Part shown: piece after piece, positions 33,646 through 58,053 of the stretch
Position numbering within the stretch: position 1 is the stretch's first letter
Layout: each line of letters begins with the position of its first letter
Source of the DNA: Methanomicrobium sp. W14
Lineage (GTDB): Archaea; Halobacteriota; Methanomicrobia; Methanomicrobiales; Methanomicrobiaceae
Length of the DNA: 64,000 bases
Assembly (NCBI RefSeq): GCF_017875315.1
Contig: NZ_JAGGMM010000003.1
Span: 372,001 to 436,000, forward strand
Direction: 5' to 3'
Notes under the pieces: model-generated
What the model was told of the DNA's origin: nothing
The model's database searches: none
The model's input: only the letters and a program-made list of their open reading frames with translations
Program-made: the position numbers and the translations under genes

Positions 33646-33759
33646 AAAACACATTCTTTCTTTTTTCCAAAATTTTTTGAAAATATTGTCTTTATCAATA
33701 AACGGCTTAAAACAGCACAATTGACAACAAATATCCGGTCAAAACAAGATAAAATAATA

Positions 33760-36339
33760 ATGAATTTCCCGTCTAAATGTCTCGCAAAAAAACTGGTTTT
33801 ACTTTTTATTATATTTCAAACGCTTTTTTTTACCGGGGAAGTCCTTGCAGACACGGGAATGTACCTGCCTGACAGCCCGGAAGAAACAAATTTTCTTACT
33901 ATGACGGATTTCTCCGCGGCTTCAACAATAGATAAATACAACCTCACGGAAAGTGAAAAAAAATTATCGACATCGCTCCTCCTGAAAACCAGGGATTCTG
34001 AAAAGACAGCGAATACTGCAGCTGCCGCGAATTCCAATGCCGTGCCGTACAGCATGAATTCAGTGTCCGGCTTAAATCCTCCTGATGAAACTGTATACGT
34101 CTATGTGTACATGTTCCCGGGGCATCCGGCGGATACGATGGATAAAATCGACGGTATCGCGGATGTAACCGAAAAGGACGAAACAAACAATCTTGCAGTG
34201 GCACGGGTTGACATAGATAACCTGGACAAACTCACCGAAATCGAGGGGGTAAGGGCAGTAAGAGAAGTAATCGCTCCGGGAGTAAGTACAGGGTCCGTCA
34301 CGACCGAAGGAGACATAGTCCATAAGACCGCAAACGTCCGTTCAACGTACGGCTACACCGGCGCAGGCGTTAAAATAGGTATTATATCAAACGGTGTTGA
34401 CTATATATCGGATTCACAGGCATCAGGCGACCTCCCCTATGACGTGCACGTTTTGAGCAATGCCAGAGGAGGTGACGAGGGAACGGCGATGCTTGAGATT
34501 GTCCACGACATGGTCCCTGACGCAGAGCTGTATTTTCACGACTGCGGCTATAACTCCCTCGAGTTCAACTCTGCAATAGACGACCTTATTTCAAACGGCT
34601 GCAAAGTGATATGCGACGATATTTACTGGAGTACACAGCCTTTTTTTGAAGACGGCATTGTAGCCTCCCACGTTAAGTCCGTACTTCAGGACAATGACAT
34701 AATATATGTAACTTCAGCGGGAAATAACGCCGAAGAGCACTACCAGGGGGATTTTTATGACGCAGGAGGAGTGCGGAGCGGGCTGCATGACTTCAGCAGC
34801 GGCACAAGTGACAACCGCAAATCCCTGTATGTCAACATAACCGCATATTCGGAGGTTATTATCATCCTGGAATGGAACGATGAGTTCGGCAGCTCAGGCA
34901 ACGATTACGACCTTTACCTGTCAAATGTAACAGATATGTACCCCAATATAACTCTCGGGGACCTGGAATATTCCGAAGACTTTCAGGACGGGTCAGGTGA
35001 TCCCCTCGAATATTTTGTTTATACAAATGACGGGCCGTCAGACATCGTTGGTGAGGTCGATGTCAAAAAAAACAGCAGTGCGGAAAAAAGAACGCTTGAA
35101 GTATTTATTTACCCGAGCAGCGGGGCACGTGTATTCAACAATAATATCGTCTCAGCGGACTCCGTTTTCGGACATGGGGCGGTCCCTGACGTCATTACAA
35201 CGGCCGCGGTAAACTGTAACACACCTTCGGTTATTGAAGACTACTCTTCAAGGGGGCCGGTCACTATATATTACCCGTCCCACGAACTCAGGTCAAAACC
35301 GGACATCACCGGAGTCGACGGTGTAAGCATTACAGGTGCCGGAGGGTTTTCAAACCCGTTCTACGGCACAAGTGCGGCCGCACCCCACGTTGCTGCTGTT
35401 GCAGCGCAAATATGGGGTGCATTCCCATCGATGACCCCGGATGAAGTCAGGACCGCTTTATACAATTCCGCCGAAGACCTCGGAACGAAAGGAAAAGACA
35501 CAACCTTCGGGTACGGCCTTGCCGACGCACTTTCCATGGCTGATTCACTCCGGACTATAGTCTCTTCAGGCCTGAACGTCGCAAAATCAGGCGGGGGGCC
35601 GAACACCGATACGGGATCGGGATTTGCAACCGACCTTAAGGCCGGTGAAAGTGCATCCTTTGACATGGACAAAGGCGCAGTCAGCAAAGTAACACTGACT
35701 GCCGTAAAAGACGTCCCAAAGGTCATGATAACCGTCAAAGAGACAAAGTCTCTTCCTTCGTCTGTAAGCAGACCTGACCGCGATACTTACGAATACGAAG
35801 ACGTAAACCTCTATTACGCTGACAATCCGGACTTTTCCGGGGGTACATTCTTTTTCAGGGTTTCAAAGAGCACGCTTTCACCGGGAGACCATGACTACGG
35901 CGACGTCGTGATGCTCCACTACAACGGAAGCTCGAAAGAGTGGGAGCAGCTTAAAACGACTTTTACCGGAAAAGACGGTTCATATTACTGCTATAGTGCA
36001 GAAACGCCGTCGTTTTCGTGGTTTGCAATAGCGTTCTCAGAAAATGCGACAATTATTCCGGAAACTGCACAGGTGCCGGCAGAGACGGTTGTCCCGACTG
36101 AAATCCAGCCGACAGTGACCGAAACAAAAATTCCGGCAGAACCATGTGAAACGCCTTCACCTGCAAATGCCACTGTAATTTCCGGGGATACCAGTAAAGA
36201 CCTGCAGGACTTTTCATCTCTTAAATCCGTCATAATTCCGGTTCTTGTAGCCTCCATTTTGTTGCTGACCGGGGTTGCCGTTGCAATGAGGCATAAAAGA
36301 AACAAGTACCCCGACTGGTGGTACGACAAGAAAAGGTAA
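33760..36339 (+). CDS. Subtilase-like surface protein with altered catalytic site and PGF-pre-PGF domain
   Basis: 859 residues from ATG 33760; the in-frame TTG at 33721 would add a tail before the signal peptide (AKKLVLLFIIFQTLFF). The S8 domain spans about 190-610. Ser538 (GTSAAAPH) and oxyanion Asn322 (SAGNN) are present. The usual Asp is Asn211 in ISNGVD and the HGTxVA histidine is replaced by Glu240 in DEGTAMLEIVHD. A PGF-pre-PGF domain follows (about 635-755), then a Thr/Pro linker and an anchor helix (SVIIPVLVASILLLTGV) with basic tail. It may be an inactive subtilase or use a Glu/Asp/Ser-type site. Confidence 0.85.
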   Translation: MNFPSKCLAKKLVLLFIIFQTLFFTGEVLADTGMYLPDSPEETNFLTMTDFSAASTIDKYNLTESEKKLSTSLLLKTRDSEKTANTAAAANSNAVPYSMNSVSGLNPPDETVYVYVYMFPGHPADTMDKIDGIADVTEKDETNNLAVARVDIDNLDKLTEIEGVRAVREVIAPGVSTGSVTTEGDIVHKTANVRSTYGYTGAGVKIGIISNGVDYISDSQASGDLPYDVHVLSNARGGDEGTAMLEIVHDMVPDAELYFHDCGYNSLEFNSAIDDLISNGCKVICDDIYWSTQPFFEDGIVASHVKSVLQDNDIIYVTSAGNNAEEHYQGDFYDAGGVRSGLHDFSSGTSDNRKSLYVNITAYSEVIIILEWNDEFGSSGNDYDLYLSNVTDMYPNITLGDLEYSEDFQDGSGDPLEYFVYTNDGPSDIVGEVDVKKNSSAEKRTLEVFIYPSSGARVFNNNIVSADSVFGHGAVPDVITTAAVNCNTPSVIEDYSSRGPVTIYYPSHELRSKPDITGVDGVSITGAGGFSNPFYGTSAAAPHVAAVAAQIWGAFPSMTPDEVRTALYNSAEDLGTKGKDTTFGYGLADALSMADSLRTIVSSGLNVAKSGGGPNTDTGSGFATDLKAGESASFDMDKGAVSKVTLTAVKDVPKVMITVKETKSLPSSVSRPDRDTYEYEDVNLYYADNPDFSGGTFFFRVSKSTLSPGDHDYGDVVMLHYNGSSKEWEQLKTTFTGKDGSYYCYSAETPSFSWFAIAFSENATIIPETAQVPAETVVPTEIQPTVTETKIPAEPCETPSPANATVISGDTSKDLQDFSSLKSVIIPVLVASILLLTGVAVAMRHKRNKYPDWWYDKKR

Positions 36340-36520: not shown

Positions 36521-39500
36521 ATGCCTGAAAAAAATCTTGTAAAGATTCATCCCGGGTGCGGCCCTAAAAGCTGTGTCGAGGCTTTTAAACAGGAATATAC
36601 GGATTTTCCCCTGAAAACATACCTACTCGTCCCTACCGAGAGGCTCAAAAGAGACATCGAAAATACCCTTCTTAAGGAGGAAATTGCAGTCGTTGAAAAG
36701 GCAGTTTCAACCCCTTTGGCGTTTGCATCCGCGACCGTGGAGAAGATTCCCGGCCACAGGCTGATATCCGAAGAGGAGGCGAAGATGATTCTCCTGAAAG
36801 CTGCCAGGAAAAACAGTAGCTACGCCGGTGCACTTTCACCATCAAAGGATTTTTCGTCCAGGCTTTTAAACGACCTCTACGGCCTTGTCAAGGTCGCAAC
36901 TGAGCAGGAGGCGGATTACAGGCAGGTCTTTTCACGTGAAAGCCCTAAAAACAGGGCCATTGCCAGGGTAATCGAGGATTATGCAGAAATCATACGGTCC
37001 GAAAAACTAATCCCTCCCGAAAGGATCTGGACGACAGCCACGGAACATATAAAAGAAAAAGGTTTTTCAGGCGAAACTCCCACATTCTTTTTCTCAGGGA
37101 TATATGAACCCTTTCCAGCCGTAAAATCATTCATTACGGCCTGCTCGTCAAAGAGCAGAAAATGTGTATATTTCATGCCTTTCTGTGAAAACCGCAAAGT
37201 CTGCACAGACAACGGGAAATGGTTCGGTGCGAAAACCACAACCGCCGAGACCGTAAGTGCATGCGACTATACTGTCGTCTTTTCAGGCGGCAACCCTGCC
37301 GGTCTAACGGCGGATATTTTTGCAAAACGCTATGACAACTTCAAATCCGAGATTTCAGGAATAGCGGCTGAAATATCCCGGCTGGTAAAATCAGGCGTGA
37401 AACCTTCTGAAATAGCCGTCGCATTCCCCGACCCTGCCGGTGCAACGGCGGTTGCGGATGAAATCTTTTCGGACTTTGGCCTTTCCTTCTCCTCGTCGGC
37501 GACATTTCCATTGTCTCGCTCCCCCATCGTCCAGTCAGTCATCCTTACGGCTGAAGTCATAGCAAAGAAATTTTCAAAGGGGGCGGTCTCGGAATTTCTT
37601 GCGTCACCATACCTTGCATCGGAAAGGCTCCTGCCTGCAAAAAAGGCGTTCACGGACACTGTAGCTGAAAACGCCCGTATTGACGAAGGGTTTTCGTCCT
37701 GGGAGAAAAACCTTGAAAAATACATAGACAGTCAGAAAAAAAACCTTTTATCGGAAGATCTGCCAAACTCAAAGAAAAAGGACCTGGAAAAAAAGATTAC
37801 GGACGCGAGGTACGTTTTAAAAAACGTCGTCCCTGTTTTGTCTGAGCTGAACGACCTGTCGCACAGCGACACATACCGCGGCCATATCAAAAACTTCACA
37901 GAACTTCTAAAAAAGTGGAAAGTCCCGGTAATAAGCGGCATATGCGGGGAAAAAATCCTTTCAAGGGACAAAAAAGACCTTGAAGACCTGAAAAAACTCT
38001 TAAAAGGACTTTCAAAGACTTCCGAAACTTCCGGGGAGGATAAAGTCCCCTTTTATGAATTTTCAAGGCTTCTCTCCTCGTCCGCGGGAAGCACGAGAAT
38101 CCCCCTTGAAAGGGACGACTCAAAGATTCAGGTCTCGGGAATACAGGGGCTTCAGGACACGGGTTTTTCATACGTGTTCCTTGCAGGTCTTGTCGACGGA
38201 AAAATACCCGACATTCCCGGAATCCTTCCTTATACAACCGACGAAGAAGACCAGAAAATCTGGCCGGGAAAGAAACGCGACAAGGTCCGGGGAGAGAGGT
38301 TTTACTTTGTAAAGGCCCTGTATGCCGGAAGACGGGCCGTATACCTTAGCTGTCACAACGAGGCGGAAGGAAGACAGGAGATCCCATCGCAGTTTTACGA
38401 GACCGCATCCGGCATCCTTGCGGCAAAAGAGCCAAAAGACCCCGGAAGAAAAGGCCCGGTGTCATATTCCCTCGAAGAGACCGGCCGCAGTCTTTCAAAA
38501 GGTATTGTCTGTGACGACTTTTATCTCCCTGAAGGCATATCCCCCGAATCCGTCATGGAGAGAATAAACACCGAAGGCTTTTTCAGGCGGGGACTGTACG
38601 ATTCGGCATATGACGGGCTTTTGTCAGGCGACGACGATATAAAGGAAGCGCTAAATGAAAGGTTCGGCGGGAAATATGCCTATTCACCGACATCGCTTGA
38701 AATATACTCACAGTGCCCGTTCAGGTTCTACCTGAAGCACGTCCTCGGGCTAAACCCGCCACCTAAAACCGACTTTGCACTTTCCGCCGCAGACAGGGGC
38801 GACCTTCTTCACAAAACGCTGTTTTCGTTCTATTCGGAGTGGATGAAAAACCACGAAAGACCCCCTTCAGGAATCGACAGGGACGAGGCGCTGTCCCTTT
38901 TGAAGTCATGTGCAGGCGAAAATATTGAAGCCTACGGGATGCAGGGACCTGCATGGGACTCAATGACAAAGGAGATACTCGGGGAGACCGGGTACGGGAA
39001 AGGGATACTTGAAAAGTTTGCCGACGAAGAGGTGAAACTTTACCCGACCGGGTTCGTCCCGAAATATTTTGAGGCCGGGTTCGGGTCTGCCGGACCGGGA
39101 AATTCTTTTTCGGACGGGCCCGTCGAAATAACGTCAAAGAGCGGCAAAAGCATATTTCTAAGGGGATTTGTCGACAGGATAGACGTAAGAGACGGTGACT
39201 TTGTCATAACTGATTACAAGACGGGAAACAACCCGAAATACAGGGATATTGCCTCAGGCAAAGCCCTCCAGCTCCCCCTATACCTCAAAGCCGCGGAAAA
39301 GTCCATGGACATGAGAGGAATAGGCGGGTTTTACTATAAACTCTCGAAAAAAGAAGTCTTCAGGAGGGCCGAACTGTATGACCCGGATGAAGAGGAGCTA
39401 TTCTCAGCCTTCCAAAAGGCGAGGATAAAAAAAGAGCCGTTTGAGGACATTCTTGACAGGTCCGTAGAATTCGCATGCAGCTATTCCGAATGCATAAGAA

Positions 39501-39664
39501 AAGGGATATTTACTCCCGCAAAAGAGACCGGAGTCTGCCCCGGCTACTGCGAGTTCAAAAACCTGTGCAGGTTCTCGGAGTTCAGAATTCTTGAACAGGA
39601 AAATATACTAAACGGCCCCAAAGAAAAAGGCGAAAACCCCGGAAAAAACAAAGGAGACGACTAA
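36521..39664 (+). CDS. addB: AddB-like nuclease subunit (PD-(D/E)xK, iron-sulfur)
   Basis: 1047 residues. The N-terminal part resembles an inactivated helicase: the P-loop position reads HPGCGPKS, without a proper GKT. The C-terminal nuclease has GFVDRIDVRDGDFVITDYKTG with Asp898 and Lys900, and QLPLYLKAA as motif-QxxxY-like end. Four cysteines, C732 (SQCPFRFY) and C1006/C1010/C1016 (CPGYCEFKNLC), match the AddB 4Fe-4S staple. It would cut the 5'-ended strand during double-strand-break processing together with the helicase gene that follows 2 nt later. Archaea usually use HerA-NurA instead. Confidence 0.85.
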   Translation: MPEKNLVKIHPGCGPKSCVEAFKQEYTDFPLKTYLLVPTERLKRDIENTLLKEEIAVVEKAVSTPLAFASATVEKIPGHRLISEEEAKMILLKAARKNSSYAGALSPSKDFSSRLLNDLYGLVKVATEQEADYRQVFSRESPKNRAIARVIEDYAEIIRSEKLIPPERIWTTATEHIKEKGFSGETPTFFFSGIYEPFPAVKSFITACSSKSRKCVYFMPFCENRKVCTDNGKWFGAKTTTAETVSACDYTVVFSGGNPAGLTADIFAKRYDNFKSEISGIAAEISRLVKSGVKPSEIAVAFPDPAGATAVADEIFSDFGLSFSSSATFPLSRSPIVQSVILTAEVIAKKFSKGAVSEFLASPYLASERLLPAKKAFTDTVAENARIDEGFSSWEKNLEKYIDSQKKNLLSEDLPNSKKKDLEKKITDARYVLKNVVPVLSELNDLSHSDTYRGHIKNFTELLKKWKVPVISGICGEKILSRDKKDLEDLKKLLKGLSKTSETSGEDKVPFYEFSRLLSSSAGSTRIPLERDDSKIQVSGIQGLQDTGFSYVFLAGLVDGKIPDIPGILPYTTDEEDQKIWPGKKRDKVRGERFYFVKALYAGRRAVYLSCHNEAEGRQEIPSQFYETASGILAAKEPKDPGRKGPVSYSLEETGRSLSKGIVCDDFYLPEGISPESVMERINTEGFFRRGLYDSAYDGLLSGDDDIKEALNERFGGKYAYSPTSLEIYSQCPFRFYLKHVLGLNPPPKTDFALSAADRGDLLHKTLFSFYSEWMKNHERPPSGIDRDEALSLLKSCAGENIEAYGMQGPAWDSMTKEILGETGYGKGILEKFADEEVKLYPTGFVPKYFEAGFGSAGPGNSFSDGPVEITSKSGKSIFLRGFVDRIDVRDGDFVITDYKTGNNPKYRDIASGKALQLPLYLKAAEKSMDMRGIGGFYYKLSKKEVFRRAELYDPDEEELFSAFQKARIKKEPFEDILDRSVEFACSYSECIRKGIFTPAKETGVCPGYCEFKNLCRFSEFRILEQENILNGPKEKGENPGKNKGDD

Positions 39665-39666
39665 AA

Positions 39667-42600
39667 ATGCTTACAGACAGGCAGAAAGAGGCGATGAGGC
39701 ATGACATCAGTCTCTGTGTCACGGCAGGGGCGGGGACCGGAAAGACGCATGTCCTTGTAAACCGCTATATAAGCCTCATCGAAGACGCCGGGTGCAGGCC
39801 TTCCGAAATTCTTGCCCTGACATTTACGGACAAGGCCGCGGCCGAGATGAAAGAGAGGGTCGAAAAGGAGATCTTTGAAAAAGAAGGACCTTTCTGGGAC
39901 CAGATTAAAGAGGAGATGATGTGGGCCAACATTTCCACATTCCACTCCTTCTGCTCGAAAGTCCTCAGGGAGTTCCCGGTAGAGGCCGGAATAGAACCCG
40001 GATTTTCGGTCCTGACCGACAGCGAATCCGAGGACATCATAAAGGACACCATAAATTCTCTTTTTACCGGAAAACCCGACCCGTTCGTAAAAGAAAGCCT
40101 TGACGAATGCCTGTGCACATACGGGACATACTACCTCGAGTTATTTTTAAGGGAGATGCATAGGAAGAGAAGATATGCGAACGATTTCTTCGAGGCTCTT
40201 GAAAATTCCCCGGAAAAAACGGCAGTAATGTGGAAAGAGGCGCTATTGCAGGAAAAATTAAGCATTGCAACGGAATTTTGGGAAAGTTCGGTCCTCCCGA
40301 AAGCCGCAGGAGACCTTTTTTCGCTTTCGGAAAGTTTTGCAGGCGACGGCGACAAAGGTGCAAAATACCTGAAATCCGTAAAGGAGTTTCTCATCCTCCT
40401 CAAAAGCGAAGACCCCCGTGATATCTGCAGGGGCCTTCTTGGGATTGCGGAGACTGCCGGCGGCTCAAAGAGCATGGGGAGCAAAAAGGTATTCGGGGAC
40501 TTCAAGGAGAACCTGATATCCTCTTATTCGGCCCTAAAGGACTACGCCGACGGCCTTCCGGGTGATATCCTTGCAGCCGAAACCACGGAAGACACACCGG
40601 AAACGAAAAGGACACTTAAAATCCTGAAATCTCTCTATGTAGTCTACAGGGAGATGGAAAAAGGCATCAGGCGGGAAAAGCATGCCCGCGGCGCCGTGGA
40701 CTTCACCGACATGATAAACCTCACCTATTCGCTCTTCAGAAAATACCCTGATATTGTTGCAAAAAGCTACTCGAAACGTTTCAAATACGTCATGATAGAC
40801 GAGTTCCAGGACACCGACCCTGTCCAGGCCGAAATAACGTCATATATCCTGAACGGCGGCAAACAAAAAGACAACCGGAAATGCAGCAGCATTTTCGTCG
40901 TAGGTGACCCGAAGCAGTCGATTTACCTATTCAGGGACGCCGACGTGACACAGTTCAGGCGTTCGGGTGAAAAAATAAAAAACGAATACAAAGGAGACCT
41001 TGTATCGCTTGACATAAACTTCAGGAGCACAAAGGAAGTCCTTTCGTTTGTCAACCGCATCTTCGGTGAAATATTAAAGGAGACGAAAAAACCGTGGGAC
41101 TTCGGGTACGAGCCGGTCCGTGTCTCTGAAAAAAGAGCTGAAGACTGCGGCTCGGTCGGGCTTATAATAACTCCACCCGGAAAAACGGTTTCGGAAAGGG
41201 CCGTTTTTGAGGCTGATGCAGTTGCAAGGAAAATCAGGATTATTACCGGCGAAAAAAAAGTTCTGGTCTCCCAAAAACCCGCATCGTGGCAGGATATCGC
41301 CATTCTTATCGAGAGGAGAAACAACCTGAAATACATCGAATACTCCCTTAAAAAATACGGAATACCGTACAGGGTCTACGGGGGCCTGGGACTCTACGAA
41401 AAACAGGAGGTCCTTGACGCAGGCTCGGTGCTCTCTTTTCTGAAAAATCCAAAAGACGACTCATCCCTTTATGCGGCTTTAAGATCGCCTTTCTTCGGGT
41501 TTTCCGACGCAGAAATCTTCAGGATATGTAACGGGTACGCTGAAGGCCTTTTTGAAAAATTAAAGAGGGACGAATCCGAAAAATCGAAAAACGCATGCAG
41601 ACTCCTTTCGTCCTGGCTTCTTTATGCAAGAAGAGTTTTGCCCTCCGCACTTTTCAGGAAAATAATCTCGGAATCCGGGATTTACGCGGTTTATGCAGGA
41701 GTCCCCGGAGGCGGACAGGCGATGGCAAACCTCGAAAAGCTCTCGGACATCATACGCGAAAGGGAGAAGGGAGGCTTTTACACCCTCGACAGACTTGTTT
41801 CCGAGCTTTCGTCATCCGTAAGTTCGGGCGAAAAGGAAGGGGAGGCGGAGCCTGAAAACACCGGCGGGGACGCTGTCACCATAATGACAGTCCATGCATC
41901 AAAGGGGCTTGAATTTCCGGTCGTAATAATACCAGGACTTTCGGACTCCTCTCCCTCCGACAACTCCCCGGTCGTCGTCGACGGAGAGCTTGGAGTAGGA
42001 ATAAAAATACCCGATTTCGAGACAGGAGACGACTACGTGAACTCTCCACCTCTTATGGTCCAGAAGTACAGGCAGAGGCAGAAGATGCAGGCGGAAAAAA
42101 AGCGCCTGTTCTACGTTGCCGCGACAAGGGCAAGGGACCACCTGATAATGTGCGCCTCGGAGCCAAAGGAGATGCCTTCATCGTTTGAGGCGTGCAAAAC
42201 GAGGGCCGACTGGGTCATGTTCTGCCTTTTGCGGGGAAAGGACGGACTTCATGACGGCGTATACGAAACCGTATGCGACGGTGAAAAATGCACGGTAAAG
42301 GTGACAAGGGCAGAAAACCTTGCCGATTTCGGTGCAGACGAAAAAAAACCGAAATACGTTCACCTGCCCAAAAATATCCCGGCGCCTGAAAACTATGGAA
42401 AATCCGTTTGGTCATTCCCTGAAGCACGGTTATGTGGCAGTCATGAAAGAGTCTTTTCCGCAACCGAAATAGAAGACTACCTGAGAAAAACAGGTGAAAT
42501 TAAAACCGCACCCCAAAAAAAGGCTGCAAAAAAGCCGTCCGCAAAAGACGGGCTGAAAATGGCGGACAGGGGCACATTTATCCACGAAATATTCGCAGGA

Positions 42601-43047
42601 AAGGACCTGCCTGCCGTTTTATGGAATTACCCTGAAGTCCGGGAAGATGAGGCACAGCTCTACGCAGGGATGTACAGGAAGTTTCTTGACTCCGAATTCA
42701 TGAAAGACGTCAAAAGGTCATATTGCGAGCTTTCGTTTAAGACCGGAATTGCAGGCTACAAAATTTCCGGAGCAATCGACAGGCTCGTCGAGAAAACAGA
42801 CGGGTGGTACGTTATAGACTACAAGACAGGCGACGAAACCGAAGAGGACCACAGCGTACAGATGGGGATATACAAAGAGGCGGCTGAGGGTATTTTAAAG
42901 CTGCCTGTAAAAACTGTTATTTATAAGACCTCTGACGAAAGCTTTAATGAAGTCCCGATAAATTCCGCGGAATTAAGAGACAGGGTCTCTAAAACCTGCG
43001 ACAAAATGACAAGAGAAATATACGATGATACAGACATTCAGCCTTGA
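39667..43047 (+). CDS. addA: AddA-like UvrD-family helicase-nuclease
   Basis: 1126 residues. Walker A TAGAGTGKTHVL (Lys26), motif Ia LTFTDKAAAEMKERV, Walker B VMIDEFQDTDPVQAE, motif III VVGDPKQSIYLFRDAD, motif V MTVHASKGLEFPVV, and motif VI AATRARDHL. The C-terminal PD-(D/E)xK domain reads GAIDRLVEK then VIDYKTGDE (Asp1051, Lys1053) and QMGIYKEA. This is the full layout of bacterial AddA, a 3'-5' helicase with a nuclease for the 3'-ended strand. It overlaps the glycosylase gene by 23 nt. Confidence 0.9.
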   Translation: MLTDRQKEAMRHDISLCVTAGAGTGKTHVLVNRYISLIEDAGCRPSEILALTFTDKAAAEMKERVEKEIFEKEGPFWDQIKEEMMWANISTFHSFCSKVLREFPVEAGIEPGFSVLTDSESEDIIKDTINSLFTGKPDPFVKESLDECLCTYGTYYLELFLREMHRKRRYANDFFEALENSPEKTAVMWKEALLQEKLSIATEFWESSVLPKAAGDLFSLSESFAGDGDKGAKYLKSVKEFLILLKSEDPRDICRGLLGIAETAGGSKSMGSKKVFGDFKENLISSYSALKDYADGLPGDILAAETTEDTPETKRTLKILKSLYVVYREMEKGIRREKHARGAVDFTDMINLTYSLFRKYPDIVAKSYSKRFKYVMIDEFQDTDPVQAEITSYILNGGKQKDNRKCSSIFVVGDPKQSIYLFRDADVTQFRRSGEKIKNEYKGDLVSLDINFRSTKEVLSFVNRIFGEILKETKKPWDFGYEPVRVSEKRAEDCGSVGLIITPPGKTVSERAVFEADAVARKIRIITGEKKVLVSQKPASWQDIAILIERRNNLKYIEYSLKKYGIPYRVYGGLGLYEKQEVLDAGSVLSFLKNPKDDSSLYAALRSPFFGFSDAEIFRICNGYAEGLFEKLKRDESEKSKNACRLLSSWLLYARRVLPSALFRKIISESGIYAVYAGVPGGGQAMANLEKLSDIIREREKGGFYTLDRLVSELSSSVSSGEKEGEAEPENTGGDAVTIMTVHASKGLEFPVVIIPGLSDSSPSDNSPVVVDGELGVGIKIPDFETGDDYVNSPPLMVQKYRQRQKMQAEKKRLFYVAATRARDHLIMCASEPKEMPSSFEACKTRADWVMFCLLRGKDGLHDGVYETVCDGEKCTVKVTRAENLADFGADEKKPKYVHLPKNIPAPENYGKSVWSFPEARLCGSHERVFSATEIEDYLRKTGEIKTAPQKKAAKKPSAKDGLKMADRGTFIHEIFAGKDLPAVLWNYPEVREDEAQLYAGMYRKFLDSEFMKDVKRSYCELSFKTGIAGYKISGAIDRLVEKTDGWYVIDYKTGDETEEDHSVQMGIYKEAAEGILKLPVKTVIYKTSDESFNEVPINSAELRDRVSKTCDKMTREIYDDTDIQP

Positions 43048-43861
43048 AAAAACGCCTTTTTCACTTTCGACAACACTGTCCTGCGGCCAGGTGTTCAGGT
43101 GGCACGAAACCGGCGGTTGGTGGAGGGGCATTGCACACGGAAAACTTATAAAAATAAGGCAAAAAGGCAATATTCTTGAATATTCGGGCTGCGACGAGGA
43201 CTTCATCAGGTATTATTTCCACTTCGACGCAGACCTTGACGAAATCCTCGCTTCGATTAACAGGGACGAAAACATCGATGAGGCGATAAAAGAGCATGCA
43301 GGTCTCAGGGTCGTAAGGCAGGACCCGTGGGAATGCCTGCTGACATACCTTTGCGGACAGAACACGAGTATCCCGCTCATTGAAAAGATGCTTGACAGCA
43401 TGTCCGAAATGTCCGGTGTTCCCGTTGAAGACGGGGAGGAGAAAGCGTACCTTTACCCTACACCCCAGAGCCTGTCAGGGTTCTGCAGGGACGAGATCGC
43501 CAAATGCTCGACAGGGTACAGGGCTTCATACATATGCAGCACGGCCTCGGAGATTGCGGGCGACAAAGGATGGGCGGACAGGATACTTTCCTCGGACTAC
43601 GAGTCTGCCAGGAAGGAGATTATGAAATACAAGGGAATAGGGATGAAGGTCGCCGACTGCATCCTTCTTTTCGGGTTCCAGAAGTACGAGTCCTTCCCGG
43701 TCGACAGGTGGGTCAAAAAGATAATGTACGGGCTCTACGGGGTCGGGGATTCGGAAAAAACTCTTTCCTGCGGAGGATACGAGAAAGTCCGCAGGTTCGG
43801 GCAGGAGCACTTCGGCCCCTACTGCGGGTATGCCCAGGAATACCTTTTTGCGGGACGCTAA
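43025..43861 (+). CDS. ogg: 8-oxoguanine DNA glycosylase/AP lyase (Ogg1-type)
   Basis: 278 residues. An N-terminal OGG domain (SLSTTLSCGQVFRWHETGG) precedes an HhH-GPD fold: LLTYLCGQNTSI, then hairpin YKGIGMKVADCILLFG with catalytic Lys208, then Asp227 in FPVDRW. It removes 8-oxoguanine from DNA and cuts the abasic site. Being coupled to addBA by a 23-nt overlap makes this a DNA-repair operon. Confidence 0.9.
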   Translation: MIQTFSLEKTPFSLSTTLSCGQVFRWHETGGWWRGIAHGKLIKIRQKGNILEYSGCDEDFIRYYFHFDADLDEILASINRDENIDEAIKEHAGLRVVRQDPWECLLTYLCGQNTSIPLIEKMLDSMSEMSGVPVEDGEEKAYLYPTPQSLSGFCRDEIAKCSTGYRASYICSTASEIAGDKGWADRILSSDYESARKEIMKYKGIGMKVADCILLFGFQKYESFPVDRWVKKIMYGLYGVGDSEKTLSCGGYEKVRRFGQEHFGPYCGYAQEYLFAGR

Positions 43862-51113: not shown

Positions 51114-51521
51114 TCAGGCAACGCCGTTTTCCCTGAAGCAGTCAATGTAATTCTTGTCAGTTCCTTTGATGTGCCCTGTAATCCACCCGCTCAGAAATTT
51201 CATGACATCAATGGAAAGACCAAGTTTTCCTGAAGAAAAAGAGTCCTGAAAGTCCACGACCTTTGCGACAAAAGCGTCGTGCTCTTTTTTGTGCTTCTCG
51301 TAGTCGGGATACCCAAATTTCTTCATGTATTTTTCCTCTGTCCCGAAGTGGTACTGGGTATATTCGGCAAGCTCTTTCAGGGTCTTTTCAAGTGCGTCCT
51401 TTCCCTTTCCCGAACGCATTCCGTCATGAAGGGCGTTTATCTGTGATACGAGTTTCTTGTGCTGTTCGTCAATTTCATTTATTTGTACAGAGAGGTCGTC
51501 TGACCAGTTCATATATGCCAT
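51114..51521 (-). CDS. Bacteriohemerythrin
   Basis: 135 residues with all seven di-iron ligands: His21, His58, Glu62, His77, His81, His117, Asp122 (DEQHKKL, YHFGTEEKYM, KHKKEHDAF, HIKGTDKNY). It reversibly binds O2 and may carry or scavenge oxygen in a strict anaerobe, or sense it. It is a single-gene unit; an A/T-rich promoter region lies upstream. Confidence 0.9.
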   Translation of the reverse strand: MAYMNWSDDLSVQINEIDEQHKKLVSQINALHDGMRSGKGKDALEKTLKELAEYTQYHFGTEEKYMKKFGYPDYEKHKKEHDAFVAKVVDFQDSFSSGKLGLSIDVMKFLSGWITGHIKGTDKNYIDCFRENGVA

Positions 51522-51900
51522 AGTATATTGTTCGTATAAGTACTAATTAAATTTTTAGGATCTCAAAACCACAATAAACCCTGAATAACGGATTTTTAAC
51601 TAAAAATAATAACTTTCCCTGTTTTTACGGGCGCGGCAGGGTCAGGGACAGCTACATTGCAAAATTCTGTCAAAAAAACTTACAGGAAAAAATAACGGCT
51701 ATTAAAATAATCATACATTCAGTGATAAATAATATTGACAGAATAAAGAGTTTGAGAATAAATAGTTTAAAAACAATTTATCCTAAAAACAGCAAAATAA
51801 ATGAGGATTACTTCATTCGCCTGAAAAATAAAACTACGTTTAACCGGATTTTCAACGGAAAATTTACAGGTTCCAAAGTTTTGCAGAAAGGACCGGTGAC
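51522..51900. other. 379-nt AT-rich leader of the LamG cluster
   Basis: Divergent region between the hemerythrin and LamG genes. It contains promoter-like A/T sequence and one lysine-rich 60-codon frame (51722-51904), listed separately. No repeat or RNA gene was recognised. Confidence 0.5.
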
Positions 51901-51904
51901 ATGA
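51722..51904 (+). CDS. Possible 60-residue basic peptide coupled to the LamG gene
   Basis: GTG at 51722 to TGA 51902-51904, whose bases overlap the ATG of the LamG gene (ATGA). The product is rich in Lys, Asn and Ile (INNIDRIKSLRINSLKTI) with no recognisable domain. The exact stop-start overlap argues for a real leader gene, but the composition is what random AT-rich DNA would give. Confidence 0.25.
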   Translation: MINNIDRIKSLRINSLKTIYPKNSKINEDYFIRLKNKTTFNRIFNGKFTGSKVLQKGPVT

Positions 51905-54900
51905 TGCAGGATGAACCCAGAGGTGACGGAGGCTACATCTCGATGTCCCTTGACTCCCTTTCATGGGCGCAGACAGATGCTGCAGCAGCCGGCCTGTTTA
52001 CAGGGCAGGAACAGGTCTCGGTGGACGCATGGGTAAGGTTCGACGGCCTTCCGGCCGAAACCACGGTTTTAGGGCAGGAAGGCGTCTTCGCCTTTGGGAG
52101 CAGGTCTGACTCGGTTTATTTCAGGTTTGAGGGACTTTTGGCAGTATTCTCAAACCCTGCTCAGTCTAAACTTCATGACGAAAACTGGCATTATATATGC
52201 GCAACTTTTGACGGCTCGACCGTGAGACTTTATATCGACGGCTGGTTCAATGCAGGCCAGAGCTGCATGGGAAACATTGCCCCTAAAACTAACCCCGTCC
52301 TGATAGGCCGCGGTGTCAGGGGGCTTGTCAGGCGTGTACGTATATATAATACCGCTCTTGACGAAAAGACCGTTCTAAACAATATGTACTGTTCTCCGGC
52401 ATCAGGTACAATTGTTGCCGATTTTGACTTCAACGCAGGTAAGCCCGAAGACAGGGGACCTTCATCTTACCCGGTGTCGCTACAGAACAACGCCTTTATG
52501 GTCAAAGTCACACCCGCACTTTCACCGGGCACGCACGGTTTTGCACGACCGCTGAATGATACCGACATAAATCCCGGCGGAGGACAGGTGGACCCGTATT
52601 CCGTACAGGCCTGGATATACATTTCGTCAAAGTCAAATCCCGTTCAGGCGGTTTTTGTCAACAGTGGCCTGATGGAAGACACGGGAATGGCACTGTATGT
52701 AAGATATGATAAAAATGCATCAGCCTATCGCCTAGTATCACAAAGGGGGTCTTTCGGCAGCAGCGGCCAGGCACTTACATCTTCAGGTACAGTTTCAGAA
52801 GGCACCTGGACAAACGTCGCCACGACATTCGACGGCATTACTCTCAGTCTCTATATAAACGGCGTACTCAGCGGTTCCGTGAACTGCAAACCTGTCCCGC
52901 TGTACAACAGGTTCGGGTATTTACTCATAGGCGCTGCGGTCGAAGAGGGCAGCCCTTTGGCCACTGCAACGTTTCTGGGTTTCATACGCGGAGTGGACGT
53001 CTGGTCGCGTGCATTAACCGCCGCAGAAATCGCAGACTTCATGAAAACCCCTCCTTATACAAAGTCGCAGGGCCTGCAGGCGTCCTATGTCTTTACGAGT
53101 TCTCCGGCGCGAAACTGGGTCAACGGCCACCCGGTTGCGCTTGCAGAGGGGGCAGTCCTTTCGGGCCAGAGAGAAAAGATTTCTGAAAGTGAAGGACTGC
53201 CCCGCGATGAGTACTCCGGAATGCCTGATACGGGACTTGATCCCGGTTTAATGGAAAACATACGTTTCGGTCTCGATTTCCATGAATTTTATGAGAAAAA
53301 CCGCAAAGCCTTTGACGAGGCAGAAGCGAGGGATATTGCGGCGTTTGACGACCCGAAAGACCGGGAAATTATAAAAAAGGCCTGGGATGACGTCAGGGAT
53401 AAAATTGCAAACGACCCTTTGTCCCTGCCTCTTCTTGTGACCCGCCATAAAATCAACGGGGAGCACCTCCTTATAGTCCACAGACCTGAAAGGTCTTATG
53501 TGGCATACCGCACTGCGGAGGAAAATTTCGATGACTGCACAATGTGGAAGATTTCGCTTGTATTCACCATTATTGCCGGTGTACTCGATGCCGTCACGGG
53601 AGTCGGGGCCGTCAAAACCAACAAGGCTGTAATCTATATAGCACGTGTCCTGAAAGTGCCGAAAATAAGAGCAATGCTGGCCCTCGGGGCATCAATCTCC
53701 GCTATAAATATTTTCTCCATAGCGGGCTGCCTTTATTCATCGGGAATGCTGCGTCAGCTCATTCTTCTTGTTCTTGACGTCAGTTTCTGGACTCTTATCA
53801 GGGTACTGGGAAATATTGTCGCATTTGTAACAGGCTTTGCCTCCGCCCGTATCATAGCATCTCTTGTCGCTACAGCAGGGGCTTATGCAATAACATATTC
53901 CGGCAGACCCGCGTCCTGTGACCCGTTCCCCGCCGTGAGTCTGGCAGGCGTCGCATTCGACTACGACCCCGCCGGACAGGCCGTGGACGCACTGACAATC
54001 AGGCGAAACTACGGTTCAGATATAAATGTACCCGAATGGAAACCCGGCATAACACTTCCAAAAGATTCACCTTGCGCCTATGCCCTCAGCCTTATAGAGG
54101 GAAAGACACCGGCAATTCAGGTTACGCTTAACGTTCCAGAATCCACAACACGCACAACAAGTATTCAGGCGACGGGAGGAGGCGTTCTCGGGGCAATCGA
54201 CCCGGCAACTGTAGATTTCAAATCAGGCACGGACGTGACGGTTACCATTCCTCTTTCCCACAACACCATCTCTTCAAACGGGGTCGGACGCTATGACGTG
54301 AAATGGAACTGGCAGTACAAAGGAGAGGACGGCACCTGGGAAAACATGGCCGCAACAACGCACAGGGTCTATGTCCTGCTCGACAAACCGTGCAATCCCT
54401 GGAAGCAGACCCCAAACCGCACAAGCAGACAGCTCCCGTGGACAGACGTCCTTGACTACTCCTGCATATGGGCCGCAGGCGCAAAAACAACAGCCGATAT
54501 CCTGGACAAAATAACGGTAAAAGTCAATTCAGGCCTCGGTCTTAAGTATGATACCTCTCGCGGAAGCTCGGTCTACACCGATCGCAACAACAGTTTTCTG
54601 TGCAGCGATTTTATCAGTTTATTGGCTACAGGAAAAGGAAACGGAAAAATCGTCAACTGCACGGACTGCGCAACGATTGTCACAACATTCGCCAATATCC
54701 TGGGAGCAGATGTAATGGAATCCATCATGACCTCCGACCGTTATGCTTCCGAAGGGTTCAGCTGCAACCAGATACTTGCAATAGGAAAGACTACGTGGGA
54801 AGTACCCTTTAAGTGGGGGTTCAGGTATCATGAAGTGGCGTGGACGGGTTCAGGGTTTATCACCGATAACATATACGATGCCTGCCTTAAGTACGACACC

Positions 54901-55113
54901 GGCAAAGACCCGTGGGGAAGCGGTTCTCACGCTGCAGGACTGCCGGTAAACGTGAAGTTCTCCATATTGCAGCGAAAACCGAAACTTCCGGTCAGTGCCG
55001 ACAGTGCACGCTACCGGGAAAGACTTGCCGCAAATACGAACGCGGGGATTCTGAAATGTTTGCCGCAGGGCGCATCCCCGGGGACCAATTCAGGGAGAAG
55101 GCCAGTAAAATGA
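51901..55113 (+). CDS. LamG-membrane-transglutaminase-like multidomain protein
   Basis: 1070 residues, no N-terminal signal peptide. Two LamG/concanavalin-like domains lie at about 20-180 (WHYICATFDGSTVRLYIDG) and 210-385 (WTNVATTFDGITLSLYING). Then come a charged linker (about 430-540) and a hydrophobic block of three to four helices (about 548-670; LVFTIIAGVLDAVTGVGAV, LIRVLGNIVAFVTGFASAR). A beta region (about 700-840) and a C-terminal domain with Cys923 (NCTDCATIV), His977 (RYHEVAW) and Asp993 (IYDACLKYD) follow, the order and spacing of a transglutaminase/cysteine-protease triad. It may bind glycans and cut or crosslink a target. Two unknown genes follow in operon. Confidence 0.75.
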   Translation: MMQDEPRGDGGYISMSLDSLSWAQTDAAAAGLFTGQEQVSVDAWVRFDGLPAETTVLGQEGVFAFGSRSDSVYFRFEGLLAVFSNPAQSKLHDENWHYICATFDGSTVRLYIDGWFNAGQSCMGNIAPKTNPVLIGRGVRGLVRRVRIYNTALDEKTVLNNMYCSPASGTIVADFDFNAGKPEDRGPSSYPVSLQNNAFMVKVTPALSPGTHGFARPLNDTDINPGGGQVDPYSVQAWIYISSKSNPVQAVFVNSGLMEDTGMALYVRYDKNASAYRLVSQRGSFGSSGQALTSSGTVSEGTWTNVATTFDGITLSLYINGVLSGSVNCKPVPLYNRFGYLLIGAAVEEGSPLATATFLGFIRGVDVWSRALTAAEIADFMKTPPYTKSQGLQASYVFTSSPARNWVNGHPVALAEGAVLSGQREKISESEGLPRDEYSGMPDTGLDPGLMENIRFGLDFHEFYEKNRKAFDEAEARDIAAFDDPKDREIIKKAWDDVRDKIANDPLSLPLLVTRHKINGEHLLIVHRPERSYVAYRTAEENFDDCTMWKISLVFTIIAGVLDAVTGVGAVKTNKAVIYIARVLKVPKIRAMLALGASISAINIFSIAGCLYSSGMLRQLILLVLDVSFWTLIRVLGNIVAFVTGFASARIIASLVATAGAYAITYSGRPASCDPFPAVSLAGVAFDYDPAGQAVDALTIRRNYGSDINVPEWKPGITLPKDSPCAYALSLIEGKTPAIQVTLNVPESTTRTTSIQATGGGVLGAIDPATVDFKSGTDVTVTIPLSHNTISSNGVGRYDVKWNWQYKGEDGTWENMAATTHRVYVLLDKPCNPWKQTPNRTSRQLPWTDVLDYSCIWAAGAKTTADILDKITVKVNSGLGLKYDTSRGSSVYTDRNNSFLCSDFISLLATGKGNGKIVNCTDCATIVTTFANILGADVMESIMTSDRYASEGFSCNQILAIGKTTWEVPFKWGFRYHEVAWTGSGFITDNIYDACLKYDTGKDPWGSGSHAAGLPVNVKFSILQRKPKLPVSADSARYRERLAANTNAGILKCLPQGASPGTNSGRRPVK

Positions 55114-55129
55114 AGGAGGGTTTAGTCTT

Positions 55130-55621
55130 ATGAAAATGCAGGACTGGCTTAAAGGCGCCCGTAAAAGTTTTAATTTCGACGAGTGGCCACACCCTCCGGA
55201 AGAAAATGCACAGGTTAGCGTGAGACAGCTTATCCTTGACCTTAGTAAGACTGCCGGGGACTGGCGCCTGGAAAAGCGTCTCCCATGGGGAAACTTTGGG
55301 TACGTGGACTATTTCCGGAGTGTTAAAAACGACAGGCACAGGGTTATGGTGCGCATCAGCGAGTATGGGACCCATGATGACGCACGCATGGCGCTTTTGG
55401 AAGAGGTCAGCTTTTCGTCGGCACCGACTCTGCCGCGCCTCGATGAACTTGGAATAGAAATAGGAGACGTCGGTTTTACAGGACACGGCGATGTAAACAC
55501 AGGCATCACGTTTGTACGCCGCAACATTCTGGCGGACGTAAGAAGCATAGGAGAGGAGCCCGTATCAGTCAGGGAATTCACGCGGTTTGTGGACAACTAT
55601 ATTATCGGTGCCGGATTATAA
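55130..55621 (+). CDS. Unknown protein of the LamG cluster
   Basis: 163 residues, soluble, no signal. A strong Shine-Dalgarno sequence (AAGGAGGG) overlaps the stop of the LamG gene, 16 nt upstream, giving tight co-expression. The sequence alternates strands and helices (SVRQLILDLSKTAGDW, VMVRISEYGTHDDARMALLEE) and resembles no family I can name. It may be a partner, chaperone or immunity factor of the LamG protein. Confidence 0.65.
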   Translation: MKMQDWLKGARKSFNFDEWPHPPEENAQVSVRQLILDLSKTAGDWRLEKRLPWGNFGYVDYFRSVKNDRHRVMVRISEYGTHDDARMALLEEVSFSSAPTLPRLDELGIEIGDVGFTGHGDVNTGITFVRRNILADVRSIGEEPVSVREFTRFVDNYIIGAGL

Positions 55622-55655
55622 CCAAATTAAAATAACTTACATATAGAGACACAAA

Positions 55656-56678
55656 ATGACAACATACAACGATATTTACATAAGAGACAATTTCGGTGAT
55701 ACAGGGGTCATTCCGTCGACCGGCATCCCTTACCAGTCCCCGGACATCATTCCCTTCCAGGACAAAACGCTTACGTGGGATAAGGCAAACTCGTCATATA
55801 AAGGCCCCCATATCGGAAAATCAATCATAAACAACGGTGTCAACAACATATACGTCCGGGCAAAAAACCTGGGCGATAAAGAGGTATCTGGCAGCACCGT
55901 CAGCCTGTACTACTCTAAAGCCTCCCTGTTTCTTCTGCCGGTCAAATGGACTTCTGTTATGAGTGCAGGAGGAAAAAAGGCCCTTTCGTTCGTCGACGGC
56001 TCAGGAAGCAACTCGATTTCCCCAGGGGGAGTTGCAGTCTCAAACCCTTCCTTTTTTCTGACAGGCCTGCCGCCGGTTTCACGTACACATTACTGTTTAA
56101 TCGGCATAGTGCAGACACCGGACCACCCCGTAACCATTCCCGCGGCATTCACAAGCAATGCCGCCTATGACAAATGGGTAATGAATAACCCCGCCGTTGC
56201 ATACCGCAACATCAGTTATTCCCCCAATACCAAAACACAGGTGAGCAGGGTCTTTGATTTCGGCAACGTTAACCAAAGTTCTGCTTATTTCACTATCATC
56301 ATAACAGGGCACGGTTTCGTCCCCGGGACAGCCGTCAGGTCGCAGTGTACAGACGTAAACTGCCCCATAGACAACAATGCATCTCTTCCCGAGGGTGACC
56401 CGCAGGGCAACCAGAACGCAAGTTTTGTAACGAGTGTCCCCGGAAATTTCAGCGGAAACCTGGTGGTTACCGTCACGTCCCCCGAAGGAAATTTCCCCGC
56501 AGGAGCAAGCCTGACCATTTCATACTTCCAGATTCCAGACAAATCAAACGCCCTGGATATGGCAGTTGCAAGACGTTTTGCCTTAGCGGAGAATGCGGAC
56601 TTAAAAGTGCCCAAACTTATAAGGCTTGGCGAGTGCAGGCTCAACATAACAGGCGACCCCGCACTGGCTGAAGACTGA
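55656..56678 (+). CDS. Beta-rich unknown protein of the LamG cluster
   Basis: 340 residues, soluble, no signal peptide. The N-terminal part (YIRDNFGDTGVIPSTG, NNIYVRAKNLGDKEVSG) looks like a structural beta domain; the middle holds YFTIIITGHGFVPGTAV and GNLVVTVTSPEGNF, and the end is helical (LDMAVARRFALAENAD). It follows the previous gene by 34 nt. I have the impression of similar unnamed bacterial proteins beside LamG genes, which needs a search. No catalytic motif is seen. Confidence 0.65.
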   Translation: MTTYNDIYIRDNFGDTGVIPSTGIPYQSPDIIPFQDKTLTWDKANSSYKGPHIGKSIINNGVNNIYVRAKNLGDKEVSGSTVSLYYSKASLFLLPVKWTSVMSAGGKKALSFVDGSGSNSISPGGVAVSNPSFFLTGLPPVSRTHYCLIGIVQTPDHPVTIPAAFTSNAAYDKWVMNNPAVAYRNISYSPNTKTQVSRVFDFGNVNQSSAYFTIIITGHGFVPGTAVRSQCTDVNCPIDNNASLPEGDPQGNQNASFVTSVPGNFSGNLVVTVTSPEGNFPAGASLTISYFQIPDKSNALDMAVARRFALAENADLKVPKLIRLGECRLNITGDPALAED

Positions 56679-56808
56679 CCGGCATTTACTGGTTTTCCAT
56701 TCCTTTTTTTTAGAATTTTGCAGGATAATAAACGATAACAGATGGAAAAAGAGCAGAGTTTTTCATCAGGATAAAAATATATGTTTTTTTAAAATTTTAC
56801 CGGATATT

Positions 56809-58053
56809 TTACGTCCCGATATCCCAGCTGGTCATGTATTTTTCCTGGTATTCGGAAAGTTTGTCGATTTCAACGCCGAGGGAGGAAAGCTTTAACTTCG
56901 CAACCGAGACGTCGATATCGTTCGGGACTTCGTAAACCCCTCCGGAAAGCTTCGGCCCTTCGTTTTTGATATACTCTGAGCACAAAGCCTGAAGCGCAAA
57001 CGAGAGATCCATTACCTCTACGGGATGGCCCATACCTTTCGGGACTGAAAGGTTTACAAGGCGACCTTCGGCAAGGACACTTATTTTTTTGCCTTTTATG
57101 ATATAGGTGTCAATTCCGTCGCGCTTTTCCATTCCTTCCTTGTGCTCCTCAAGCCATGGGATATCGATTTCGACATTGAAATGACCGGCGTTTGAAAGAA
57201 TCACACCGTCCTTCATAAGCGGGAAGTGGTCCCCGGTTATAATCGACGTGTTTCCGGTGGTGGTTACAAAGATGTCGCCTATCTTTGCCGCCTCCTCCAT
57301 CGTCATCACGTAATATCCGTCCATGTGCGCCTCAAGTGCACGTCTCGGGTCGACCTCGGTCACAATCACCTTTGCGCCGAGACCGTGCGCCATCTTTGCA
57401 AGTCCGTGTCCGCAGAACCCGTATCCCGCAACCACAAACCATTTTCCCCCGATAAGGGTGTTCGTCGTAATCATAACGGCCGAAAGTGCACTCTCCCCTG
57501 TCCCGTGGACATTATCAAAGTGCCTTTTCATCGGGGTATCGTTTACAGCTATAACCGGAAACTCAAGCTTTCCTTCCGCCGCCATCGAGCGGAGGCGGTG
57601 GATTCCTGTCGTCGTCTCCTCGCACCCTCCGACGATATTGTCCAGGAGTTCGCGCCTCTTCGTATGAATCCTGTGTATCAGGTCCATACCGTCGTCGATT
57701 GTAACAGTCGGGTTCGAATCGAGGACACGATCTATTGCGTCATAATATTCATCGACCGAACACGCACGCTTAGCGTAACAGTGGACATTTTTGACCGAAT
57801 TCAACGCCTCTGCAACGTCGTCCTGCGTTGACAGTGGGTTGCATCCGGTGATGTACACTTCCGCACCTCCTGCAGCAAGGGTCTCTACAAGGACGGCCGT
57901 CTTAGCCTCAACGTGAAGCGCCATCCCGATTCTTGTACCTGAAAGGGGCTTTTGTGCCTCAAATCTTTTTCTGATTGCGCCGAGAACAGGCATGTACTGC
58001 CTCGCCCAGCTCATCTTAAGTTCACCTGTATTCAAAATTTCACCTTTTTTCAA
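56809..58053 (-). CDS. ahcY: S-adenosylhomocysteine hydrolase
   Basis: 414 residues. Motifs: GMALHVEAKTAVLVETL, TIDDGMDLI, and NAD-binding GYGFCGHGLAKMAHGLGAKVIVTEVDP. The C-terminal segment is close to archaeal AhcY, lacking the extra loop of eukaryotic forms. It splits S-adenosylhomocysteine to homocysteine and adenosine (or inosine homologue in methanogens), removing the product of methyltransferases. The start at 58053 is supported by the conserved GELKMSWARQYMP opening. Confidence 0.95.
   Translation of the reverse strand: MKKGEILNTGELKMSWARQYMPVLGAIRKRFEAQKPLSGTRIGMALHVEAKTAVLVETLAAGGAEVYITGCNPLSTQDDVAEALNSVKNVHCYAKRACSVDEYYDAIDRVLDSNPTVTIDDGMDLIHRIHTKRRELLDNIVGGCEETTTGIHRLRSMAAEGKLEFPVIAVNDTPMKRHFDNVHGTGESALSAVMITTNTLIGGKWFVVAGYGFCGHGLAKMAHGLGAKVIVTEVDPRRALEAHMDGYYVMTMEEAAKIGDIFVTTTGNTSIITGDHFPLMKDGVILSNAGHFNVEIDIPWLEEHKEGMEKRDGIDTYIIKGKKISVLAEGRLVNLSVPKGMGHPVEVMDLSFALQALCSEYIKNEGPKLSGGVYEVPNDIDVSVAKLKLSSLGVEIDKLSEYQEKYMTSWDIGT

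What the first reader, a model, noticed from the sequence alone, without database searches (positions are those of the whole stretch)
51722..56678. Three-gene LamG / transglutaminase-like cluster with no signal peptides
A 1070-residue protein joins two LamG domains, a hydrophobic helix block and a C-terminal Cys923-His977-Asp993 set spaced like a transglutaminase triad. Two soluble unknowns follow tightly, one with a strong Shine-Dalgarno sequence overlapping the first stop. Lacking signal peptides, the set could be an injected or lysis-released effector with partners, a cell-contact system, or an internal crosslinking machine. I do not recognise it as a described system.
Basis: partly seen in the sequence, partly recalled or inferred. 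Interest (0 to 1): 0.75.

Follow-up and report, generated by a model that had tools for sequence, protein, structure and literature searches.

The report
Mobile LamG–cysteine-enzyme three-gene cassette
A methanogenic archaeon carries a rare three-gene set, also found in a Burkholderiales bacterium, whose main protein combines two sugar-binding-type domains, a membrane-seeking stretch and a new cysteine-enzyme domain, laid out like a one-chain toxin with a dedicated partner protein; the toxin reading is inferred from sequence and has not been tested.

Summary
The three genes are real, intact and under purifying selection. The same set, in the same order, occurs in Methanolacinia petrolearia and in a Burkholderiales MAG (55-66% identical). 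It is absent from the other 230 genomes searched in its order and sits at a variable site that holds other genes in two congeners, so it behaves as a horizontally moved cassette.

The catalytic residues need one correction. Across six homologues the invariant set is Cys920-His977-Asp993 (motif NCTDxA).

The C-terminal domain also exists alone (about 435-500 aa proteins, no LamG) in bacteria. In all seven loci found, gene 2 or a remnant of it follows directly. Gene 3 belongs to a wider family found beside or fused to signal-less hydrolases, next to a Tc-toxin A gene, and beside a giant LamG protein.

No Pfam, NCBIfam, PHROG, PADLOC or PDB-sequence match covers the C-terminal domain or genes 2 and 3 convincingly. 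AlphaFold failed (pLDDT 32-36), so triad geometry is untested.

Best reading: an AB-toxin-like antagonism cassette with LamG binding, hydrophobic insertion, a transglutaminase/papain-like effector and a cognate partner. Confidence about 0.4. Contractile injection is disfavoured.

The parts
51901..55113 (+). gene 1: 1070-aa LamG-LamG-linker-hydrophobic block-beta region-cysteine enzyme domain
   Evidence: full-length homologues in G112 (66%) and L020 (59%)
51988..52395 (+). LamG-1 (about residues 30-165)
   Evidence: second Laminin_G_3 stretch in Pfam; boundaries approximate
52591..53034 (+). LamG-2 (residues 231-378)
   Evidence: Pfam PF13385 best stretch
53539..53874 (+). hydrophobic helical block (residues 547-658), several TM-like stretches
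   Evidence: hydropathy in all three LamG-bearing homologues, absent from the two-gene bacterial forms; least conserved region, 49-51% identity
53887..54396 (+). beta-rich region (residues 663-832), part of the mobile C-terminal unit
   Evidence: aligned in A6; strands in a low-confidence model
54397..54945 (+). cysteine-enzyme (transglutaminase/papain-like) domain, residues 833-1015
   Evidence: six-sequence alignment; 73% and 62% identity to G112 and L020
54658..54660 (+). Cys920 codon, predicted nucleophile in NCTDxA
   Evidence: invariant in six homologues, unlike Cys923
54829..54831 (+). His977 codon (HEVAW)
   Evidence: invariant in six homologues
54877..54879 (+). Asp993 codon
   Evidence: invariant in six homologues
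55113..55120 (+). Shine-Dalgarno AAGGAGGG for gene 2, overlapping last base of the gene 1 stop
55130..55621 (+). gene 2: 163-aa soluble partner of the cysteine-enzyme domain
   Evidence: adjacent to that domain in 7 of 7 loci, as an intact or truncated copy
55656..56678 (+). gene 3: 340-aa protein with the [DI][IL]YxRD...SPDI beta domain, shared with signal-less hydrolases and toxin loci

Best explanation
A horizontally mobile antagonism (toxin-type) cassette. Gene 1 is laid out like a one-chain AB toxin: two LamG domains bind a glycan or surface ligand, a hydrophobic helical block inserts in or crosses a membrane, and the C-terminal cysteine enzyme (Cys920-His977-Asp993, transglutaminase/papain-like) modifies or cleaves a target. 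With no signal peptide and no contractile system, release is most likely by lysis or an unrecognised route. Gene 2 acts on the enzyme domain itself (inhibitor/immunity, or chaperone), because it follows that domain even where LamG and gene 3 are missing. Gene 3 is an accessory protein of a family shared with other signal-less hydrolase and toxin loci. Shown: domain order, invariant residues, partner linkage, transfer between archaea and bacteria, purifying selection. Inferred: enzyme activity, membrane crossing, toxicity, roles of genes 2 and 3.
For: LamG x2; conserved hydrophobic block; invariant C/H/D. The enzyme domain is swapped between different N-termini (LamG versus HHH-like) with gene 2 kept. 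All three genes occur in an archaeon of another genus and in a Burkholderiales MAG whose contig is otherwise bacterial. In two congeners the syntenic site holds other genes. Gene 3 relatives lie upstream of a Tc toxin A gene, beside a 2365-aa LamG protein, beside other ORFs, and fused to C13, S8, M4 and M6-like peptidases; those checked lack signal peptides.
Against: No profile assigns the C-terminal domain to transglutaminases or to any toxin family. Similarity to transglutaminase profiles is not clearly beyond chance. The predicted structures are unusable. No recognised secretion marker. Nothing links the cassette experimentally to killing, and gene 2 matches no known immunity family.
Confidence: 0.4

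Rival explanations
1. An intracellular conflict (abortive-infection-like) module: the cysteine enzyme is held by gene 2 and released when the cell is attacked. LamG and the hydrophobic block only place it at the inner membrane or sense a ligand.
For: The two-gene bacterial form has no lectin and no membrane segment. In G509 it is followed by ORFs with a weak DUF4062/TIR-like match, one also matching PADLOC candidate PDC-S60. The insertion site holds a Fic-like gene in G114.
Against: No PADLOC match for any of the three window genes or the enzyme domain. LamG domains are unusual inside cells (established knowledge).
Confidence: 0.2
2. A surface or envelope crosslinking or processing machine of the producer (for example S-layer or matrix), exported by a route without a classical signal peptide.
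For: LamG and Ig-like beta domains are typical of surfaces; gene 3-type domains occur as C-terminal domains of peptidases.
Against: Found in 2 of 232 genomes of the order, at a variable site, and in a bacterium with a different envelope. No signal peptide.
Confidence: 0.15
3. The C/H/D residues are conserved for another reason (metal or disulfide; Cys855, Cys995 and Cys1053 are also invariant) and the domain is a non-enzymatic binding protein.
For: Other Cys are invariant too; the profile match to transglutaminases is within the shuffled range.
Against: The order and spacing Cys-57-His-16-Asp and the CxDxA motif fit the transglutaminase pattern; the unguided local alignment puts Cys920 on the catalytic Cys.
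Confidence: 0.2

Closest known systems
Polymorphic toxin systems with Tox-transglutaminase/papain-like toxin domains (PMC3482391)
   Same: C-terminal catalytic unit found on different N-termini with a small gene directly downstream; Laminin-G is among the adhesion domains listed there
   Different: No signal peptide or secretion marker, no match to known toxin or immunity profiles, no silent cassettes, hydrophobic block in mid-protein
Single-chain AB toxins (binding, translocation and catalytic domains on one chain)
   Same: Linear order binding-hydrophobic-catalytic
   Different: No sequence relation; not shown to bind, insert or act on any cell
Tc toxin complexes
   Same: A gene 3 relative lies directly upstream of a Tc toxin subunit A gene on a Burkholderia ubonensis plasmid; Tc proteins also lack classical signal peptides (own knowledge)
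   Different: No TcA, TcB or TcC domain in the window proteins
Transglutaminase-like superfamily (PF01841 and relatives)
   Same: CxDxA, His and Asp in the same order
   Different: No significant profile match; fold not established
Hypervariable Ig-domain gene modules of Thermococcales (PMC8416519)
   Same: Variable archaeal island with one large protein and smaller downstream genes
   Different: Many of those large proteins have signal peptides (19 of 30) and the downstream genes are mostly membrane proteins; no link to this cassette was found

Membership tests
Transglutaminase/papain-like superfamily | Cys, His, Asp catalytic triad in that order, conserved | tested here: met
   Cys920, His977, Asp993 invariant in six homologues; sequence level only
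Transglutaminase/papain-like superfamily | Profile similarity to PF01841 or another family of the clan | tested here: not met
   No Pfam hit; hhalign P 0.046, 2 of 100 shuffles as high
Transglutaminase/papain-like superfamily | Fold with the triad brought together | tested here: inconclusive
   AlphaFold2 with two sequences, mean pLDDT 36 and 32
Polymorphic toxin system | Secretion signal or secretion-system marker domain | tested here: not met
   No signal peptide; no such domain in Pfam or NCBIfam
Polymorphic toxin system | Same C-terminal domain on different N-terminal architectures | tested here: met
   LamG form versus HHH-like form
Polymorphic toxin system | Cognate immunity gene directly downstream | tested here: inconclusive
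   Gene 2 linked in 7 of 7 loci; immunity function not testable here
Contractile injection (eCIS) effector | Sheath and baseplate genes in the genome | tested here: not met
   No PF04984 match in G000, G112, G111, G232; the control search worked
Tc toxin complex | TcA/TcB/TcC domains | tested here: not met
   No such Pfam match in the three proteins
Single-chain AB toxin | Binding, translocation and catalytic functions | not testable with these tools
   Only the domain layout was shown

The most novel reading that the evidence does not exclude
The cassette belongs to an undescribed guild of signal-less effectors in archaea and bacteria that share the gene 3 protein as a common delivery or assembly factor, and its gene 1 is an archaeal AB-type toxin with a new cysteine-enzyme family and a dedicated inhibitor (gene 2).
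Probability: 0.22. Interest if true: 0.85.

Novelty: new variant of a known kind. Interest (0 to 1): 0.6.

Why it matters
Protein weapons of archaea are poorly known, and few genes of this type have been traced between archaea and bacteria. If the reading is right, the cassette gives a testable archaeal toxin-partner pair with a new enzyme family, and gene 3 offers a marker for finding other effectors that leave the cell without a signal peptide.

Tried and rejected
Two AlphaFold jobs (residues 668-1070 and 839-1025, window plus L020) gave unusable models; I did not add sequences from the genome search because the tool admits only named sources, and no fold search was run on them. Viral contigs were scanned with four profiles, and phages and plasmids by tblastn: no relative of gene 1's C-terminal part or of gene 2. 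The 182-aa middle gene of the Salipiger locus is not gene 2. A contractile injection link was rejected. Cys923 as nucleophile was rejected. An archaeal TATA element (TTTAWATA) or strong terminator for the cluster was not found. A foreign base composition was not seen: GC3 of the three genes is like that of neighbouring genes. Text searches for LamG with Tc toxins, polymorphic toxins or transglutaminase-like toxins in archaea found no paper. The C-terminal extension of gene 2 in L031/L032 reminded me of chagasin-type inhibitors, but Pfam gave no support.

Full report
Observation. The three ORFs are present as described: gene 1 51901-55113 (1070 aa), gene 2 55130-55621 (163 aa), gene 3 55656-56678 (340 aa), all on the + strand. 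The reported start 51722 lies in upstream non-coding DNA; an in-frame stop sits at 51841. Gene 1 has two Laminin_G_3 stretches, E=2e-38, a hydrophobic block at about 547-658 and no signal peptide. Gene 2's ribosome-binding site AAGGAGGG (55113-55120) overlaps the last base of the gene 1 stop.

Host and relatives. The window's genome is a 2.54-Mb archaeon with 231 other genomes of its order held. Gene 1 full length was found in one other genome of the order, G112, at 66% identity; gene 2 and gene 3 follow it there in the same order. G112's single contig is 2,843,290 bases, the exact genome size published for Methanoplanus (now Methanolacinia) petrolearia SEBR 4847 (PMC3035365, reclassification PMC4149034), so I identify it as that strain. 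The window's own organism is probably another Methanomicrobiaceae genus; this is inference. A scan of about 85,000 named genomes found one more close relative, a Burkholderiales MAG (L020), again with all three genes in order. L020 flanks are bacterial (LapB, PyrF, PfkB and epimerase genes, RNase R), so archaeal contamination of that contig is unlikely.

Mobility. Core gene AdoHcyase is 83% identical between the window and G112, while the cassette is 66%; its LamG-1 part is as close to the bacterium (68%) as to G112 (67%). In congeners G114 and G116 the flanking AdoHcyase and ABC genes are only about 2.0 and 1.5 kb apart, against 5.8 kb in the window, and the gap holds other genes: a Fic-like ORF in G114 (its HPFNDGNGR motif is read by eye) and an unrelated ORF in G116. 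G112 carries the cassette at another place, between an MscS/NAD-synthase pair and a 228-aa ORF; G111 has that same place with gene 3 plus a metallophosphoesterase instead. This fits transfer and a site of variable content. All three genes are under purifying selection (dN 0.21-0.25, dS 1.5-2.0; dS is near saturation).

The catalytic unit. A profile of residues 430-1070 found the C-terminal part without LamG in G406, G542 and G509 (434-499 aa ORFs), and a further profile found a truncated copy in G794. Six aligned sequences leave Cys920, His977 and Asp993 invariant, with N919, D922, E978, W981 and also Cys855, Cys995 and Cys1053. Cys923 is Ser in G542 and G509. The spacing Cys-57-His-16-Asp and CxDxA match the transglutaminase pattern, and an unguided local profile alignment to 11 transglutaminase-core segments of G000, G111 and G112 places Cys920 on the catalytic Cys; but its score is reached by 2 of 100 column-shuffled templates, so this is suggestive only. 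No Pfam, NCBIfam, PHROG, PADLOC or PDB-sequence hit covers the domain. Structure prediction failed with the two admissible sequences. Both poor models start a helix at or next to Cys920, as papain-like enzymes do, but I give this little weight.

Gene 2. It follows the catalytic unit in 7 of 7 loci: G000, G112, G232, G542, G509, G794, and as a truncated start in G406. Two of these loci lack LamG, hydrophobic block and gene 3. Gene 2 is therefore tied to the enzyme domain, as expected of an inhibitor/immunity protein, chaperone or substrate; which of these is not shown. Sequence identity across the set falls to 21-26%.

Gene 3. Its N-terminal beta domain recurs as the C-terminal part of M6-like and thermolysin (M4) peptidases in other methanogens, in a C13 peptidase on a Methanomethylovorans plasmid and an S8 peptidase on a Paracoccus plasmid, as a stand-alone gene directly upstream of a Tc toxin subunit A gene in Burkholderia ubonensis, downstream of a 2365-aa LamG protein in Salipiger, next to a 568-aa ORF in G807 that I read by eye as a zinc phospholipase C type but that has no Pfam match, and next to the G111 metallophosphoesterase. 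The proteins checked lack signal peptides. In G794 a gene 3 fragment runs into the catalytic-domain fragment upstream of gene 2, the mark of a deleted locus that once had all three parts.

Mechanism. The layout binding domain - hydrophobic block - catalytic domain, the swap of the catalytic unit between N-termini, the fixed downstream partner, the patchy and mobile distribution and the gene 3 associations all fit an antagonism cassette working like a one-chain AB or polymorphic toxin. Delivery is the weak point: no signal peptide and no sheath gene, which leaves lysis or an unknown route. I put this reading at 0.4; rivals are an intracellular conflict module (0.2), a non-enzymatic domain (0.2) and an envelope machine (0.15).

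Sampling limits. Genome counts come from samples: the C-terminal unit was found (strong matches) in 4 of 321 genomes of G232's class, 2 of 299 of its phylum and 1 of 295 of the window's phylum, each count including the starting genome. The named-genome scan uses exact short peptides and finds close relatives only. The gene 3 associations are a collected list, not a controlled enrichment.

Noticed in passing
window 36521-43861: An AddB-like and an AddA-like helicase-nuclease pair (below NCBIfam equivalog cut-offs) followed by an 8-oxoguanine glycosylase-like gene in an archaeal genome.
   Followed up: no
window 33721-36339: Subtilase with a PGF-pre-PGF domain and a clear signal peptide; served here as positive control for signal peptides.
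   Followed up: partly
window 51114-56809 and the matching sites L066, L067: The stretch between the ABC gene and AdoHcyase is a variable site: hemerythrin plus this cassette in the window, a Fic-like ORF in G114, another ORF in G116.
   Followed up: partly
L032 10066-12187: Two ORFs after the two-gene module of G509 with similar N-termini; the first has a weak DUF4062/TIR-like match and a PADLOC candidate match (PDC-S60).
   Followed up: partly
L022 9252-10760: Signal-less metallophosphoesterase with an unassigned C-terminal domain beside a lone gene 3 in G111.
   Followed up: partly
L068 6526-8232: 568-aa ORF beside a gene 3 relative in G807; looks like a zinc phospholipase C by eye, no Pfam match.
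   Followed up: partly
window 10361-13582: 1073-aa protein made almost entirely of TPR repeats.
   Followed up: no
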